Below are positions 3,592 to 64,000 of a stretch of 64,000 bases of DNA, one piece after another (positions within the stretch are counted from its first letter, which is position 1; each line of letters begins with the position of its first letter). Position numbers and translations under genes: made by a program. Under the pieces are notes generated by a model. The model did no database searches. It had not been told where the DNA came from and was given only the letters and a program-made list of their open reading frames with translations. This DNA comes from Deroplatys truncata (taxonomy: Eukaryota > Arthropoda > Insecta > Mantodea > Mantidae): NCBI GenBank assembly GCA_030765065.1, contig CM060986.1, positions 75,509,573-75,573,572 of the forward strand, given 5' to 3'.

Positions 3592-4365
<774 letters not shown>

Positions 4366-4529
4366 CTTCATTAAATCCTACCATCTAAACTTTTACTATG
4401 TAGTTATTTGATGTAGACAGATCCTTCTTTCCTTACCCATAATGACCTAGGAATATTTTAAGAGTTTACAGGTGTTTTTAGGAACCTTTTTAGCTCGCCC
4501 CGTCGGACCTCGTGTAGATTGCTGTGATT
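4366..4529. repeat. 164-bp direct repeat, right copy (LTR-like)
   Basis: Right partner of 3592-3755, about 95% identical by eye. A run of C (4552-4561) follows shortly after. Confidence 0.8.
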
Positions 4530-12565: not shown

Positions 12566-13868
12566 TGAGGCGCATCCAGAAAGTAAGTTTCCCGATTTTG
12601 CTTCCTTTAAAGTAAACGTATTTAACCGGTAAAATTGCGCATGCGTAAGAGACCTATGACGTATCAATCATGCCGGCCTGGTGCCAGTAGCGCAGCAGCA
12701 GTGGCCTGAAATGCCAGCTCATATTCGTTCTTCCGCTGCCTGTGAGGTTCGGTATTTGATAAACTTTCTTACTCCACAAAACATAGCTCCGATCGAAATT
12801 CATCGCCAGTTCTCTCAGGTCTATGGGCCGAACATCATGAGCAAACAGATGGTGCGTTGCTGGTACAGGCAGTTTTCCGAAGGGCGTGAAAGTGTCCACG
12901 ATGAAGAGCGCAGTAGGGGACCGTTCCTCATCAATGATGACCTTGAGCTGGTGCGGCAGCGCATCGTGGAGAACCGTCGCTTCACGATTACGGAGCTCAG
13001 CAGCCATTTTCCGAAGATATCGCGATCCATGTTGCATGAAATTGTCACTAAGCACCTGCTGTTCAGGAAATTGTCTGCCACGTGGGTGCCGCAAAATCTG
13101 ATACCCGAGCACAAAAGAAACGCTTAGGAGCACTGGCATTTCCGCAGCGGCATCATGATGACTGCGACGAGTTCCTCAACAGGATCGTCAGGGCGATGAG
13201 ACGTGCATTTCGCACTTTGTCCCGGGAACCAAGCAGCAGATAACGCATTGACGTCACAGTGGATCTCCGGTCAAGACGAAATTCAACCCGACTGTATCGG
13301 TAAAGAAAGTGGCGTGCACGCGGTTCTGGGACATGAAGGGCATTCTGCCCATTGACTTCTTGCCCAGAGGTGAAACAGTGAACGATGACCGTTACTGTGA
13401 AACACTGTGGAAATTGCAACGTGCCATTCAAAACAAGATGTGCTTACTGCAGGTGTTGTGCTGTTCCATGACAATGCTCGTCCACATACGGCTCGGCACA
13501 CAGCAACTGTGCTGCAGGAGTTCGGCTGAGAGCTTTTGATCATCCACCATGCAATCCTGACCTTGCTCCCAGCGATTTCCATCCTTTCTTGCACTTCAAG
13601 AAATTCCTGTCCTTCGGTCAGCGTTTTGACAACGACGAAGAGCTGAAAACGAATGTCACACACTGGTTCCATTCACAGGCAATCGACTTCTATGACACCA
13701 GTAATACAAAAGTTGATCCCACAATATGACAGTGTCTCAATTCTTGTGGTGACTATGTCTAAAAATAGCTCAAACATTGACGTACTTGTTGTCAATAATG
13801 TTTTTCATGTAACTATGTTTTGTTTGTTTTTAAAAAAATAGGGAAGCTTACTTTCTGGATGCGCCTTG
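12566..13868 (+). mobile_element. Mariner transposon, full-length with TIRs and TA duplication
   Basis: A 1303-bp element flanked by TA (12564-12565 and 13869-13870). The left end is TGAGGCGCATCCAGAAAGTA and the right end reads CAAGGCGCATCCAGAAAGTA in reverse complement. The inverted repeats continue for about 30 bp with few mismatches. Length and ends are those of a standard mariner. It is complete as DNA but its transposase is broken. Confidence 0.95.
12681..13735 (+). pseudogene. Mariner (DD34D-type) transposase, frameshifted
   Basis: The N-terminal ~148 codons are open. They encode the paired helix-turn-helix DNA-binding region, including VRCWYRQFSEG and a linker ending TWVPQNLIPEHKR. 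A frameshift near 13120 ends this frame. The catalytic part continues in other frames: the first acidic residue in GDET (about 13192), the second in HDNARPHT (about 13464), and the third in PSDFH (about 13570), roughly 34 residues after the second. FLSFGQRFDNDEEL and a C-terminal FYDT follow. All three catalytic aspartates survive, but at least three frame changes and internal stops prevent a full-length protein. It could still be mobilised in trans through intact ends. Confidence 0.9.
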
Positions 13869-38191: not shown

Positions 38192-38470
38192 CCTCCGTGG
38201 TGCAGTGGTTACCATGCTAGTCTCCAATTCCCGAGGTCGCGGGTTCAAACCCGGCGGATGGCGATGGATTTTTTCGGCCGTAAAATTCCTTAGCCATGGA
38301 ATTAAAGCCACTGTTCCGTGTCATAGATTTACGGCACGTAAAAGAACCTCAAGCCCGATAAAGAGGCCTCTGAGCGAAATTTCCGCTCTTTCACGCCCAA
38401 TATGGAGTGGGATGCTAAGGGCCACAACAGTTAAGGAGCGACCATAAAAAACTCAATTTAATTTAATTTC
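38192..38470 (+). mobile_element. tRNA-derived SINE with intact A and B boxes
   Basis: The head contains TGGTGCAGTGG, an exact A-box match (TRGYNNARNNG). Thirty-odd bases later comes GTTCAAACC, an exact B box (GWTCRANNC) inside a T-arm-like stem (GCGGGTTCAAACCCGG). The body has GTAGATTTACGGCAC-like 'catagatttacggcacgtaa' and 'gataaagaggcctctgagcg'; the tail is TTTAATTTAATTT. The best preserved of three copies (others at 46438 and 60175). Confidence 0.9.
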
Positions 38471-46437: not shown

Positions 46438-46722
46438 GTCCTACGTGGTGTAGTGGTTACTATGCTAGCCTTTAGTTCTCTAGGTCACGTTTCAAAACCG
46501 GCAGAGGGCGATGGATTTTTTCATGGCTTAGCATGGCTTCCTTCAGAAGGGAAGTAAGGCCGGTGGTCGGTGTCGTAGATTTACGGCACATAAAAGAACT
46601 TCAAGCCTGATAAAGATACCTCTGAGCAACATTACCGGTCTTTCGCGCCCAATATAAAATGGGACGGTAAGGACTACAGCAGTTAAAGATCGTCCATACA
46701 TAAAACTCAGTTTAATTTAATT
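46438..46722 (+). mobile_element. tRNA-derived SINE, family of 38192-38470
   Basis: A box TGGTGTAGTGG is intact. The B box is mutated (GTTTCAAAACC). Body and TTTAATTTAATTTTT tail align with the 38.2-kb copy throughout. Confidence 0.85.
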
Positions 46723-55233: not shown

Positions 55234-57283
55234 TAGCAACATTTACTGAAATACGGTTTAAAACAGCATTTAGTATACAGAAACTTCATTACACACATCT
55301 GTAGAATAAGAATAAAGGTTACACAAGATTTTGATACTGATCGTACTGAACACACCCGTAGCGTTTGATAAAGAATAATTATTACGTGCATGTGGTGCAG
55401 TTAAAAAGAGAATACCGTTGCTTTGCTTTTGCTCTACCATCTGTCCCTAGCATTTCTGCAAGACTTAGATGTTACATCGCGGCCGTCTATGTATGTATAT
55501 TGCTTGGAATAAAAATATACTCTACTTTTGGATTATGTCCTTTATCTATTATACCGCTCATTAGCTTTGTGAACGTACCTTAGCTGACGTAATACCACAT
55601 AACTGCGCTTAGCATAAAATAAAATTGCCCTTCCGTGAGAGGTTAGTTGGTAAGCTCCTAAATCTTGGTGAGAAGGTTGCTGGCTTCAGGTGTGGGGAGG
55701 AAAGTTTTAGCTCCGAGTTTGGCTAGCATTTTTGACATCTGAATTGTAAATTAAAAATTCTAGCCACCCCCTTTTCCTTTAAGTTGTGATCTTAATATTT
55801 AAAGTGTTTCATGTTATTTGAACATAATGAGTGCCAGCAATTAAATGTGCCTGTAATCATTTGTTATTAAAATCGTATCTAATATTGTCATAATCAAAAA
55901 TTTTAAATAAAATATGAACTAAATTTCAACATCCTTAAATTAATAACAAATTCTATAATGGTCAGAATATTGTCGTAAATATCTGGAAGTTTCATTGAAG
56001 CATGAAGCATGTATTCGATGCTGTACACATTATTGTGTACTAGTTTACAAACAAGATATGACTTCTACATTTTATTTCGTAATTCAAACAGACACATTTC
56101 TTTACACTTCACGAACATTCAGTGTTAATTATTCAAACTATAGAGACGTGATACGTATTTTGTATATTCAACATTAGCTTCAGAAGACAGAAATTTAAGA
56201 TTTTGGAGAGATATAAAACTTATTATACATATTTAAGTTTCACAATTCAACTCATTAATATTTCGAAGTCATGAATGTTACTTAAGTTTTTACCCAATTA
56301 AAATTGTTGTATATGAATTTAGTTTTTACAAAGATTGATAATAAAATTCGCAGCTGCAGATAATGTAAGCATCCTTACTTATTCAACCTGGCTCTCCAGA
56401 TACTTTGGGTCGTATTTTAACACATTCCACACTTATAGCACATCACCACCTTCCTTGGGACTTGTGAGTGAGGCAGTGTGAAGTAATACCAACAGCAACA
56501 AAAGGTCAAAGTCAATGTAATAAGGATCTTCTATTATGACCCCATGATGTTCGTGTTCTAATACCAAAGCCTGGTAAATCCTCTTTAGTTTTTCAGTCAT
56601 TAACAGTGACATAATCTACATATTTTATGCTTTTACTTCCCCCATCATGTACCCTTTTGTGCATAAAATGTAGCCTATTCCCCCAAATCACGATGGTGTT
56701 TTTCTCTCCGTAAGGTTTCCACCTTCAGGTAACTAATTCTTGACTGCGCACGTATCGGCTCTCTATGTGACTGGCTTGAATAACAATTCAGGGGCATAAA
56801 AACTAACCAATGAACGGTGTTTGTAACCTATGCGTAAAGGTGGTGTGGTAGGACACCACCTCTGTGAGAGTTTTGCACACAAAGAAATCCTAAACCAATT
56901 AAAACATAATTCGGCCTTCTAGAGGAAGGGTTGAAGAATAATCTGCATGTGTTGTTTAAATTGAACGACAGCTACGAAAATTACATATATGAGAGCTTTC
57001 ATCAGTGACATAGAGGCAAAGGTCAAGTTTTTGTCGCTACTAAACGACAATAAGAAAACCGGCATTAAGAAAACGGAAGTCCAGTATGAAAACATAAGTT
57101 TTAAGTTGTAATGTTCCCTTCGGCAGTTCGGTCACACTTTGGGGGAGGCAAAGTACGCTGGCAGTCCAGTGGCTAGAATTATATTCGAAAAACAGAGATG
57201 CTCACATGGGTAAAGGTGGGGCTATATTTTGTCAGTACCAACATTAATACGTCCGTTCCATTATGGGCCACATATTATGTAAG
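55234..57283. other. Intergenic DNA, nothing recognised
   Basis: Two kilobases without conserved frames, element ends or tRNA-like boxes. Confidence 0.45.
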
Positions 57284-57420
57284 GCGGTATACATAGTAGG
57301 TAGAGAGGGTATGAAATTTTCAGCCAAAAATTCGATACTGAGATTTCATCGGAAATACGCTTTCAGACCCCCTTAATCCAAAAAAGTCATTTTTAGAAAA
57401 AAAGGGTGTGTGTGGTGTGT

Positions 57421-60174: not shown

Positions 60175-60350
60175 TTCGTTTTATTTATGGACGCTCTTTA
60201 AATAATATAATTCTTAGCGTATCATTCTAAATTGGACGTGAAACTACAGAAATGTTGCTCAGAGGCCTCTTTATCAGGCTTGAGGTTCTTTTACGTGGCG
60301 TAAATCCGTCGCCTCGGTAACCACATAGCATGTATGCTAACGTACATAAA
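60175..60350 (-). repeat. SINE fragment, family of 38192-38470
   Basis: The minus strand shows 'gataaagaggcctctgagca' and 'acgtaaaagaacctcaagcc', with a shortened head CATGCTATGTGGTTACC. Internal deletions are present. Confidence 0.75.
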
Positions 60351-60610
60351 AAGTGGCCTATTATGGAATGTGTCTGATTACGTTGTAATGACAGATGTAG
60401 CCCCACCCTCTGCCAGCGTCAGCTCTCTGTTCTTCGAGAGAGGAAATTAGAGGTTAATTTCTAGCCGCTGGTTTGGCAGAGTACTTTCAACCTAAAAAAT
60501 ATAACTGAATTACAAAAGGGTAACATTACACGTTAGTAGCAATAGAATAGCGACTTGAGCGCAGTAGAGAGATGCCGACAAGCGATAAAGTTCTTTGTTC
60601 TACGCCGACA

Positions 60611-60749
60611 AGCCCCGCCCCCTCCCTTTGTGTGCTCACATGCCGCCAGGTCTCGTGTCGTTAGGCCCCGCCCCCTCTCGCTTTGTGTGCTCACCTAATG
60701 CCGGCAGTATCTGTGCTAACAGGTTCTACCCCCTCCCCCATGCGTTCTA
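60611..60749. repeat. GC-box tandem units
   Basis: GCCCCGCCCCCTCCCTTTGT (60612) and GCCCCGCCCCCTCTCGCTTT (60665) both run into TTTGTGTGCTCAC, with a third weaker unit (CTACCCCCTCCCCCATGCG) near 60726. The period is about 52-58 bp. CCCCGCCCC is an Sp1/KLF-type GC box. In context this may be part of a terminal repeat or upstream control region. Confidence 0.65.
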
Positions 60750-60949
60750 CTGTGGCGTCATGACTTGATGGAATTGTTTTCTCGAGTCCTGCCGCCCCTC
60801 GGCAAATTAATTAGGTAATGTTCGTCAAACATTTTTTTTATGATTACTAAGGTCTGCAGATTGCATCCTCGAGCAATTAAGTTTTTTGATTAATGAATTG
60901 TTGACTGGAGCTTGAGTATAAGTAGTCTGCTCACGGTAACAGTCTGTCA

Positions 60950-61268
60950 TGTAATGAAACACTGCAGCCTTCTTGTATCTGGGGAAATCGCTTGTCCATT
61001 AGCTGAACATGTTAGACGCTTTCAACACATTAATAGGCTTTTAAGTTTACATTCCGGATCTGTTTACATACATTAGCGATCAACGACATACTTCCGTCTG
61101 GAGGTAACGGTGACACACATTAGCTGACCCGTTAGACGCTTTCACTCCATTAGCGAACAAGAGCCCGGCATGTAATGAAAAAACCCGTAACCTACTTCTG
61201 TCTGATGGTAACGGTGACCTCTATTAGCTGACATCTTTAGACGCTTTCAACTCATTAGCGAACAATGC
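60950..61268. repeat. Three ~105-120-bp tandem repeat units
   Basis: The core ATTAGCTGA-(6-8 bases)-TTAGACGCTTTCA recurs at 60999, 61119 and 61223. The second and third units also share CTTCYGTCTG, GGTAACGGTGAC before the core and CATTAGCGAACAA after it. The second and third copies are close; the first is more diverged. Direct iterons next to a virus-like gene cluster could be a terminal-repeat or replication/transcription control region. Confidence 0.8.
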
Positions 61269-61647
61269 CAGTAATTGTTTTCCTAAGTGCTCTGAAAAAC
61301 CCCCAGACACTCAATGTAAATACCTTTTAGCTCGTAGAATTTCCATCACAAACCGTGGAAAAACCCAAGTCTAGACAATTTTTTCCCTGATAATTAATGA
61401 TTAAGTTTCATAGTTCTTATTTCTTTCAATAAAATATTGCGAATAAAGTATTCATAATTCAGAAGCGTCTCATTGATTGGTGAATACTACATATGTTATT
61501 AAAAGTAAAATAAATACGGATAACATTATAGTTAAATATTATAAATGTTATTAAAAAAGGTGATTGTATTTCAAAAAATAGACAGCTGGGCTCTGCCTGG
61601 AGGGTGAATAACAGGTCTCAACATGCATTCCACCCCTCCACCGCTGC

Positions 61648-61701
61648 GTGACGTCACCGTCTACAGTATATAAGGAACGTAGGCAGCCGGAGCGATCATT
61701 T
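61648..61701 (+). promoter_or_regulatory. Core promoter: CRE palindrome, TATA box, initiator
   Basis: GTGACGTCAC, a perfect 10-bp palindrome around the CRE TGACGTCA (61649-61656), lies 11 bases before TATATAAG (61667-61674). TCATTT at 61696-61701 matches the arthropod initiator TCAKTY, with its A (61698) 31 bases after the TATA start, the canonical distance. It drives the gene starting at 61737, leaving a ~39-base 5' UTR. Confidence 0.75.
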
Positions 61702-61736
61702 ATTGTTTTTTCAGTGTTCGTTCAGTGATAATCGAA

Positions 61737-62870
61737 ATGGCTGGTGATCATCGTGCATCTGATGTGAATGATAACTGGAGCGAGTGCGGGGAAGATTATT
61801 TTCACTACGTATACTTCCATACCGAAACATGCAATGGTTTAATGCATTCAGTGTTGTGTACTCAACCGTCGCATCATGATCAGATGACTACACTGGAAGT
61901 GTGTACAGAGAGCTGTCCTGTTTATCGAGGAGCGAACATGTAAGTAATATACATATTTCTATAACTCGGTAATATATTGTACGCATGTTAAATGAAATCT
62001 AACTTGAAATTATTTCATTCTTTCAGTGAAAATCACAGGGGTGTTGATGTGGGGGATCTTAGCGATGTCGATGAAGTTGACAATGTCTTCGTCTCGAAAC
62101 ATCTAGCTAAATGTGATACAGAGTCGTGCACCGGATACATGCATTCTGTACTGTGTACTAACCCGGCCCAGCATGAACGCATGACATCCTTCTTCCTATG
62201 TAACGACAACTGCGAGGTCTACCAGCGGAGGAAGAGAAAACTCGAGTAAGTAGAAGAAATGTTAAATTACATATTCATTTACTGCTTCTAATGCTACTCT
62301 GTGTCTAACCTAAAAATTAAATTATTACAGACTGCGAATGACTGCGCCTAAGGTACCCGTACCAATAGAGGAGCTGGATCCTGAGAGACGCGATGTCGAT
62401 ATAGTGGAATATCCAATCGCAGAGCGCCATACACAGCCTATGGAGGAGGATGCCGCTCCACTACCCGACATTACTACTACCCCTGATGATAAAGCAACGA
62501 GGATGCAGGAGTGGATAAATCAGACGACTCCAGATTGCTCGCCCGAGATACACACAGAATCGTGCAAGAGCGTGAAGTGAGTATGACACTCTTTGATAAT
62601 ACTTTTTGTGTGACAAGGGGAGAGGATTTTTCTAATATATGTATTTTCTCTTTCAGACGTATGAAATCATTAACTAAACCTATTTCTAACATTGTTTTGA
62701 ATATATGTTGCAGGGGTGTGAGGAGGGAGCGGAGGAAGAGGCGGAACGAGAGCGGTGAGAAAAAGCAGAAGAGACGGTGTAAGAGGAGAATCCTCAACGA
62801 TGCTCCTATGGTCTTCTTATTCATTGAAGATACCCCGGAGGAGCATGGAGAATCGATCACATGCGCTTGA
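61737..62870 (+). CDS. Four-exon gene: tandem Cys/His modules, acidic middle, basic tail
   Basis: Predicted exons are 61737-61939, 62027-62245, 62331-62576 and 62657-62870 (stop TGA), giving about 293 residues. All introns are GT-AG with consensus donors (GTAAGT, GTAAGT, GTGAGT) and pyrimidine-rich acceptors, 80-87 bases long, and all are phase 2. ATG 61737 is chosen because no earlier in-frame ATG follows the promoter. Exons 1 and 2 each encode one copy of a module with ESC/ETC, then MHSVLCTQPSHHDQMT or MHSVLCTNPAQHERMT, then four or five residues and C-x3-C-x-V-Y. Exon 3 is acidic and proline-rich and ends HTESCK, perhaps a third module start. Exon 4 is highly basic (RRERRKRR, KKQKRRCKRR), a likely nuclear-localisation or nucleic-acid-binding tail. 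I recognise no family. The Cys/His spacing suggests metal binding; a nuclear regulatory role is inference. Confidence 0.75.
62714..62870 (+). other. Alternative 3' splice site for the last exon
   Basis: A second acceptor (TATATGTTGCAG, ending 62713) follows the first (TTTCAG, ending 62656) by exactly 57 bases. A plausible branch site (TTTCTAAC, 62684-62691) lies between them. Using it keeps the frame and removes 19 residues between the acidic and basic parts. Confidence 0.55.
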
Positions 62871-63327
62871 TGACGTCAGCATCTCCCCCTCCCATTCCGT
62901 GAATATTGGACTATACTATGACATCCCCTCCCTCTACATAAACTGCGAAAGTGATAAATCATTTGTTTATATTACAAAATCAGACTGGGATATAATATCC
63001 AAAAACATTCCAATGATTGAAGATTACCTACGCCAAGAAAAAAAGTTTGCGTGTGATGAATATTGTGACAATGTAATTTATGCATACAATATTATTGTAT
63101 TTTTTGACCATTCAATTCATTTCATAAATACTTGTTTAAATAATAATGTAATATCTTTAGACATTGAGGGTGTAAGGAACCTAAAACGACTATTGCCTTA
63201 TATTGAAAGACATTTGAATATTTTAAATGATTTCTGCAAGTCAGGAGCAACTAGTTTTTCAGGGGGTAGGAGGGGGAGAAGGAAAATGCTTGAAATGTAT
63301 GCTAAAGTCAATAAAAGAGTGTTTTAG
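62800..63327 (+). CDS. Overlapping ORF with two PC4-like repeats
   Basis: From ATG 62800 an open frame of 175 codons runs in the +1 frame over the last exon of the preceding gene, then alone to TAG 63327. The part after the overlap contains two related segments: TKSDWDIISKNIPMIEDYL (about residues 57-75) and LDIEGVRNLKRLLPYIERHL (about 118-137). Both follow beta-strand, W/V-x2-I/L, P-x-I-E, L. This pattern recalls the C-terminal half of PC4/p15 coactivator-type single-strand-DNA-binding domains; that comparison is from memory and unconfirmed. The tail is basic (GGRRGRRK). Codons become AT-rich after 62930. No separate poly(A) signal precedes 63310, so it probably shares a transcript with the upstream gene, by leaky scanning or alternative splicing. 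ATG 62845 is another possible start. Confidence 0.6.
   Translation: MLLWSSYSLKIPRRSMENRSHALDDVSISPSHSVNIGLYYDIPSLYINCESDKSFVYITKSDWDIISKNIPMIEDYLRQEKKFACDEYCDNVIYAYNIIVFFDHSIHFINTCLNNNVISLDIEGVRNLKRLLPYIERHLNILNDFCKSGATSFSGGRRGRRKMLEMYAKVNKRVF
62871..62878. promoter_or_regulatory. Second CRE palindrome TGACGTCA
   Basis: Begins at the base after the stop codon of the spliced gene and lies inside the overlapping ORF. It repeats the element in the upstream promoter. No TATA box at the right distance was found, so promoter function is doubtful. Confidence 0.4.
63310..63315 (+). terminator. Poly(A) signal AATAAA, plus strand
   Basis: Overlaps the last codons of the ORF ending at 63327. It is the only AATAAA seen downstream of the spliced gene, so it likely serves both reading frames. 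Confidence 0.65.
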
Positions 63328-63340
63328 TATATGAATTCAA

Positions 63341-63346
63341 TTTATT
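63341..63346 (-). terminator. Poly(A) signal AATAAA, minus strand
   Basis: Lies about 60 bases past the minus-strand stop at 63407 and 25 bases from the plus-strand signal, so the two convergent transcripts end in nearly the same place. Confidence 0.65.
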
Positions 63347-63406
63347 ATTCATAAACTTATCCTAGTACATTCCTTTACAAAACCATTCACCCAAACATAT
63401 ACATAA

Positions 63407-64000
63407 TTATATAAGTGCTTGCATCAAGTGAGAAAGAGGTTTGTAGGTAAATACTTTGTCATGTAGAACCAGACAGTACAGTGACGTCTGGGCTGGTATA
63501 TTTGCAGATGCTTGAATCTCGATTCTGATGTTCACAGCTCCATTTATAACCTCCTCGGGTTGGTGAGAACAGTCTATTACGAATAATGGTGCACGGTGAA
63601 GAAAATCCTTTCTCTTCAAGAGGGGGTAATTATCTCTTTCATAATAGGAACTTTGAAATTTACAGTACATTTCATATAGTGAAGCAAACTTTGAATTTTT
63701 AAAGTCCAAGTTCAAATCATGGTAGGGGTAGCATTCGCTGTTGAGGAATAGTCTCATATTAGTAATGTTACAGTGATCAAACTCGGAACTGTTCTTGCTA
63801 TAATCACCCAATCTTGCAGTCTGAGCACACACTATGATGAAGCGAGGTTTCTCGAGCTTAGATGTTGTTGCTACATTCCAAGTGAAAGATCTTGTCTGGG
63901 GTACAGCAGGCTGGGTATGAAGATCCATAGATCGAAAGGCAAGGTGTAGAGGTTTATCAGACTTGACAATTTTTAGAATGTGAACTCTTTCAGCATCAGA
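63407..64000 (-). CDS. C-terminal part of a large, possibly capsid-like protein (runs off the window)
   Basis: The minus-strand frame is open from the window edge to its stop at 63407, at least 198 codons. Methionine 63928 is internal, because the frame continues upstream without a stop to base 64000. Segments include KLEKPRFIIVCAQTARLGD, FDHCNITNMRLFLNSECYPY, LNLDFKNSKFASLYEMYCKF, APLFVIDCSHQPEEVI and ANIPAQTSLYCLVLHDKVF. Alternating hydrophobic strands suggest a beta-sandwich. The segments resemble, from memory only, uncharacterised proteins repeated across arthropod and cnidarian genomes that I associate with jelly-roll capsid proteins of Polinton/adintovirus-like elements. No database check was possible. 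It is convergent with the plus-strand genes. There are no internal stops in the visible part, so this copy is not obviously decayed. Confidence 0.7.
   Translation of the reverse strand, partial: SDAERVHILKIVKSDKPLHLAFRSMDLHTQPAVPQTRSFTWNVATTSKLEKPRFIIVCAQTARLGDYSKNSSEFDHCNITNMRLFLNSECYPYHDLNLDFKNSKFASLYEMYCKFQSSYYERDNYPLLKRKDFLHRAPLFVIDCSHQPEEVINGAVNIRIEIQASANIPAQTSLYCLVLHDKVFTYKPLSHLMQALI

What the first reader, a model, noticed from the sequence alone, without database searches (positions are those of the whole stretch)
60560..64000. Candidate endogenous DNA virus or self-synthesising element at the right edge
Sequence shows: GC-box repeats, three iterons, one strong promoter, a four-exon gene with short phase-2 introns, an overlapping second frame, shared poly(A) signals, and a convergent open frame running off the edge. 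Gene spacing is tens of bases in a window otherwise devoid of genes. Inference: this is one end of an integrated dsDNA virus-like element (Polinton/adintovirus type or a novel group), with the repeats near its terminus. No frame is visibly broken, so it may be recent or constrained.
Basis: partly seen in the sequence, partly recalled or inferred. Interest (0 to 1): 0.88.

Follow-up and report, generated by a model that had tools for sequence, protein, structure and literature searches.

The report
Recently amplified virus-like Polinton transposon
The right edge of the window is one end of a complete 17,046-base virus-like jumping element (a Polinton/Maverick) that carries capsid, integrase and DNA polymerase genes; its capsid gene occurs in hundreds of nearly identical copies in this 4.3-billion-base genome, so the element spread very recently.

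The parts
60529..60534 (.). left target-site duplication CACGTT
   Evidence: same six bases follow the right end, L010 5581-5586
60535..61293 (+). left terminal inverted repeat, 759 bp, begins AGTAGC
   Evidence: inverted copy at L010 4822-5580, 1 mismatch of 759 (at 60621; the other mismatch printed, at 60534, lies outside)
60613..60694 (+). GC-box direct repeats inside the terminal repeat
60995..61257 (+). three iteron-like repeats inside the terminal repeat
61649..61674 (+). promoter-like words before ORF1: TGACGTCA (61649) and TATATAAG (61667)
   Evidence: consensus match only
61737..61939 (+). ORF1 exon 1, with C-x4-H-x3-C-x5-H-x8-C-x3-C module
62027..62245 (+). ORF1 exon 2, duplicate of exon 1's module
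   Evidence: 42% identity, E 2e-15; differences by codon position 20/18/39; same Cys/His spacing, 0 of 20000 shuffles of each
62331..62576 (+). ORF1 exon 3
   Evidence: GT-AG boundaries, phase 2
62657..62870 (+). ORF1 exon 4 to its stop, very basic; an alternative in-frame acceptor gives start 62714
62800..63327 (+). ORF2, 175 aa from its first Met, overlaps exon 4 in another frame
   Evidence: open in 7 of 8 other copies
63310..63315 (+). AATAAA for the + strand genes
63341..63346 (-). AATAAA for the capsid gene
63407..64000 (-). double jelly-roll capsid-type protein, C-terminal half (rest in L009 1-660)
   Evidence: PF21738 E 2e-60 and 3.9e-42 for the other half

Best explanation
The locus is the left end of a full-length, recently inserted Polinton (Maverick), an integrating virus-like DNA transposon, 17,046 bp (C12:75570107-75587152). 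Shown: terminal inverted repeats, 6-bp target duplication, capsid-type gene, integrase, packaging-type ATPase, polymerase motifs, hundreds of near-identical copies. Inferred from known Polinton biology: a protein-primed polymerase copies the linear DNA from its terminal repeats, the integrase inserts it with a 6-bp staggered cut, and the capsid gene, PLA2/pX-like protein, protease and ATPase would build and fill particles. ORF1/ORF2, next to the repeat-rich left end and transcribed towards the capsid genes, most likely are early regulatory genes: ORF1 a nuclear protein with two Cys/His (probably zinc-binding) modules and a basic tail. That assignment rests on anatomy alone.
Against: The polymerase scores below Pfam's cut-off (18.5 against 25.8 bits), and its C-terminal piece matched nothing in Pfam at E 0.1 or in the PDB at E 1. 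The protease matches are weak (ASFV S273R E 0.036, adenain E 0.32; Josephin 0.034). The 283-aa gene in the place of a minor capsid protein has no informative match. For 3 of 10 other copies the far end was not found in the 3-kb stretch read. In 8 other copies ORF1 (exons 2-4) carries an extra stop in 1 and ORF2 a frame shift in 1. Of the 150 scored capsid matches 9 have a shorter open frame, 218-369 aa. No expression or particle data.
Confidence: 0.96

Rival explanations
1. The element is an actively infectious virus (adintovirus/Eupolintoviridae in the strict sense) that keeps entering the germline, so the many copies are repeated endogenisations and not transposition within the genome.
For: No stop in the 197-aa capsid piece in any of the 150 scored copies, and an open frame of 408 aa or more in 141 of 150; virion-type genes; copies nearly identical.
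Against: Transposition explains the same data. No adintovirus hexon by sequence: the 50 listed viral fold matches share at most 13% identity. No relative confirmed in IMG/VR contigs in three scans. No chromodomain found in the integrase frame at E 0.1.
Confidence: 0.25
2. Copies spread passively, as segmental duplications or satellite-like arrays.
For: High identity between copies.
Against: Each copy whose two ends could be read has its own 6-bp target duplication (8 different ones including the window's); the scored copies lie on many contigs and on both strands, 202 and 210.
Confidence: 0.01
3. A domesticated host gene cluster of viral origin.
For: Open frames, and purifying selection between the duplicated exons.
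Against: Complete element with both ends, and 412 capsid-probe matches.
Confidence: 0.01
4. ORF1/ORF2 are cargo or anti-host genes (silencing suppression or immune evasion) and not early regulators.
For: No homologues found for ORF2 in the large protein set or for ORF1 exon 2 and ORF2 in IMG/VR, Pfam and NCBIfam, in keeping with fast-evolving accessory genes. ORF1 as a whole was not searched in the large protein set.
Against: Place beside the repeat-rich end, promoter-like words and a very basic tail fit a DNA-binding regulator; none of this is decisive.
Confidence: 0.35

Closest known systems
Polinton/Maverick elements of animals (class Polintoviricetes)
   Same: terminal inverted repeats starting AG, 6-bp target duplication, rve integrase, family-B polymerase, A32-type ATPase, double jelly-roll capsid, roughly 15-20 kb (size, AG start and duplication length of the family are recalled)
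   Different: ORF1/ORF2 pair without detected relatives; GC boxes and iterons inside the terminal repeat; 412 exact matches of a capsid probe
Drosophila-associated adintoviruses 1-3 (PMC8363768, passages read)
   Same: insect-associated, 13.3-14.6 kb, polymerase B; adintovirus 1 also integrase, capsid, protease and FtsK-type ATPase homologues
   Different: longer here; hexon relationship by sequence not established
Meldviruses with megavirus- or poxvirus-like capsid folds (Buck 2024 preprint, PMC11071296, section 16 and passages read)
   Same: Polinton-type polymerase and integrase with capsid folds resembling those of larger DNA viruses; the best BFVD hit here is a Megaviridae capsid and a MELD virus protein ranks 19th
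PF21738 double jelly-roll-like proteins of insects
   Same: the capsid of this element is a member; 2200 relatives at E 1e-3
   Different: the window's copy is a long branch, at most 51% identical to the 133 relatives fetched

Membership tests
Polinton/Maverick | terminal inverted repeats | tested here: met
   759 bp, 1 mismatch
Polinton/Maverick | 6-bp target-site duplication | tested here: met
   CACGTT here; 7 of 10 other copies, two matched by script and five read by eye from the printed flanks
Polinton/Maverick | retroviral-type (rve) integrase | tested here: met
   PF00665 2.5e-9; integrase structures, best 1e-6
Polinton/Maverick | family-B DNA polymerase | tested here: met
   exonuclease and palm motifs in the two pieces; Pfam DNA_pol_B_2 only E 0.001, below cut-off
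Polinton/Maverick | protein priming by that polymerase | not testable with these tools
   would need biochemistry
[quoted passage not shown]
   (fold from a relative's model)
Polinton/Maverick | A32/FtsK-type packaging ATPase | tested here: met
   PF04665 7.2e-7; Walker A and a Walker B-like stretch
Polinton/Maverick | Ulp1/adenain-type maturation protease | tested here: inconclusive
   132-aa frame with H, D and C in the expected order (order recalled); ASFV S273R E 0.036, adenain 0.32
Polinton/Maverick | single jelly-roll minor capsid protein | tested here: inconclusive
   283-aa frame L009 751-1599 in the right place, no informative match; no fold run
Adintovirus (strict, PMC11071296) | hexon recognisable by BLASTp among adintoviruses | tested here: inconclusive
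   no adintovirus hexon at hand; the 50 listed BFVD matches share 13% identity or less
Adintovirus (strict, PMC11071296) | integrase with C-terminal chromodomain | tested here: inconclusive
   none in the 269-aa frame at E 0.1; a further exon or frame was not looked for
Adintovirus (strict, PMC11071296) | OTU-like domain at the N terminus of the polymerase | tested here: inconclusive

The most novel reading that the evidence does not exclude
A Polinton lineage that is at present mobile, perhaps through particles, in a living insect, controlled from its terminal repeats by a new early gene pair: ORF1, built from a duplicated zinc-binding-type exon, and the overlapping ORF2. PF21738, found here in insects from flies and moths to aphids and ants, would then be the capsid of a whole insect branch of Polintons whose closest folds are those of giant-virus capsids.
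Probability: 0.3. Interest if true: 0.78.

Novelty: new member of a known kind. Interest (0 to 1): 0.58.

Why it matters
Polinton particles had not been observed as of 2021 (abstract of PMC8097293, its beginning seen in the search listing). A genome with hundreds of near-identical copies, many with an open capsid frame, is a natural place to look for transcripts and particles without building anything. The locus also ties the Pfam family PF21738, with thousands of members and no paper found here that names it, to a complete Polinton.

Tried and rejected
Searches that led nowhere: IMG/VR scans for the capsid, ORF2 and ORF1 exon 2; prokaryote contigs; phage and plasmid records; PDB by sequence for the capsid (7, 49: best E 0.11 and 0.13); homologues of ORF2 in the large protein set (34: 15 candidates, none at E 0.001); PDB for exon 2, ORF2 and an ORF2 half (64, 65: none; 93: seven rows, best E 0.34); PHROGs for capsid and ORF2 (11: best E 0.0038, an unknown family, not pursued); Pfam and NCBIfam for ORF1 exons and ORF2 (6, 90, 91; PF17568 at E 0.0085-0.031 is below its cut-off); Rfam on the window (58: none). 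An internal duplication in ORF2 was suspected (a PC4-like pattern, recalled), but 605 of 5000 shuffles reached the BLOSUM62 score and 152 of 5000 the BLOSUM45 score: not claimed. A first structure model from 10 sequences was poor (pLDDT 54.1) and was not used. Literature: no paper in the held library names PF21738 or holds 'jelly roll-like domain' with 'insect'; searches gave context only. Two papers asked for by id were not held.

Before the genome search answered I leaned to the view that this capsid family stands apart from known insect Polintons; the flank showed a Polinton gene set beside it.

Full report

The whole element. The genome search answered: the window is C12:75509573-75573572 of a 4,289,915,091-bp assembly. 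Two stretches to the right (L009, L010) showed the rest. The window's 60535-61293 recurs inverted at L010 4822-5580 with 1 mismatch of 759; the next six bases outside are CACGTT on both sides. The element is thus 17,046 bp. The GC boxes and iterons lie inside this terminal repeat, so they occur at both ends. To the left, interspersed repeats with copies elsewhere in the window run up to about 60535.

Genes from left to right (Pfam). Rightwards: ORF1 (four exons) and ORF2. Then leftwards: the capsid gene (417-codon open frame; about 404 aa from its first Met, by arithmetic), a 283-aa frame, a 132-aa protease-like frame and a 244-aa frame with PLA2-like (9.6e-13) and adenovirus protein-X-like (2.9e-7) segments. 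Then rightwards: an A32-type ATPase (7.2e-7), two frames of 369 and 273 aa without usable matches, and an rve integrase (2.5e-9). Then leftwards: the polymerase, in two pieces. The polymerase rests on motifs and a sub-threshold match; its C-terminal piece found nothing in the PDB. The protease rests on weak matches.

Copies. Of 10,541 first-look candidates for the capsid piece the tool scored 150; all 150 are 99-100% identical, without a stop in the 197-aa piece; 34 of the 150, the window's own included, are 100%; the open frame is 408 aa or longer in 141 and 218-369 aa in 9. Being the best-scoring, these are not a random sample. An exact 47-base probe from the capsid gene occurs 412 times (202 and 210 by strand), control 0; elements with two capsid genes count twice, diverged copies are missed. 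Over 2091 bp the eight fetched copies differ from the window's at 2-9 sites, with a single-base gap in two of them; the capsid piece at 0-1 of 591. In these eight, ORF1 exons 2-4 are open in 7 and ORF2 in 7 (exon 1 was not covered). Of ten other copies whose ends I fetched, seven show both ends and a perfect 6-bp duplication: GGTAGG and TGCAAT by script, AATGCA, GTCGTT, GTCATC, GCAGTA and CATGCT read by eye from the printed flanks. Three lacked the far end in the 3-kb stretch read. One of the seven (C10:54.2, CATGCT) carries a second, inverted capsid gene between its ends. With one mismatch between the arms and a recalled insect rate near 3e-9 per site and generation, the window's copy would be of the order of 200,000 generations old, with wide error.

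ORF1 and ORF2. Exons 1 and 2 code for a duplicated module, C-x4-H-x3-C-x5-H-x8-C-x3-C (0 of 20000 shuffles of each). Between them third codon positions differ about twice as often as the others (20, 18, 39 differences over 60 codons; synonymous sites saturated, dN 0.44), so the protein was under purifying selection after the duplication. Exon 4 is very basic. No relatives were found where searched. An early regulatory role is an inference from place and composition.

Placement. The features tested fit a Polinton; strict adintovirus membership could not be decided. In a quick tree of 88 capsid rows (85 different) the window's copy is a long branch (1.28 changes per column) with unsure place; it keeps 33 of 43 near-invariant positions. 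The kind is known; copy number, youth and the orphan gene pair are what is notable.

Noticed in passing
G000 C9:40749702 (-) and 40764971 (+); L024; also C10:54203823/54213695 with L029, L030: The far-end stretch of the C9 copy holds an inverted second copy of the capsid side of the element, so it looks like a palindromic, rearranged derivative. Oppositely oriented capsid pairs about 10-13 kb apart also stand at C10:54.20/54.21, C4:95.17/95.19 and C2:275.02/275.04.
   Followed up: partly
ends of copies in L011-L016, L019, L020, L029, L030: Several copies have terminal repeats whose outermost bases differ (such as AGTAGAGATAAT against AGTAGCAATAGA) although the capsid piece is identical or nearly so, which suggests subfamilies or recombination between them.
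   Followed up: no
L010 2-2329: The polymerase frame begins, stop to stop, with runs of isoleucine codons, apparently expanded simple repeats; the true start was not determined.
   Followed up: no
window 12660-13124: Mariner remnant with a Mos1-type helix-turn-helix (PF17906, 1.8e-7).
   Followed up: no
window 60178-60306, 38326-38451, 46578-46706; 60323-60535 and about 57100-57301: Two unnamed interspersed repeats; the element sits at the very end of the second.
   Followed up: partly
window 4013-4384 (-): A frame that resembles, from recall, the N-terminal part of a DEAD-box RNA helicase of the p68 type; no Pfam match at E 0.01 and no PDB match at E 5.
   Followed up: partly
protein P0008: A 124-aa relative of the insect capsid is labelled Klebsiella pneumoniae on a 478-bp contig; contamination of that assembly is the likely reason (inference).
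   Followed up: no
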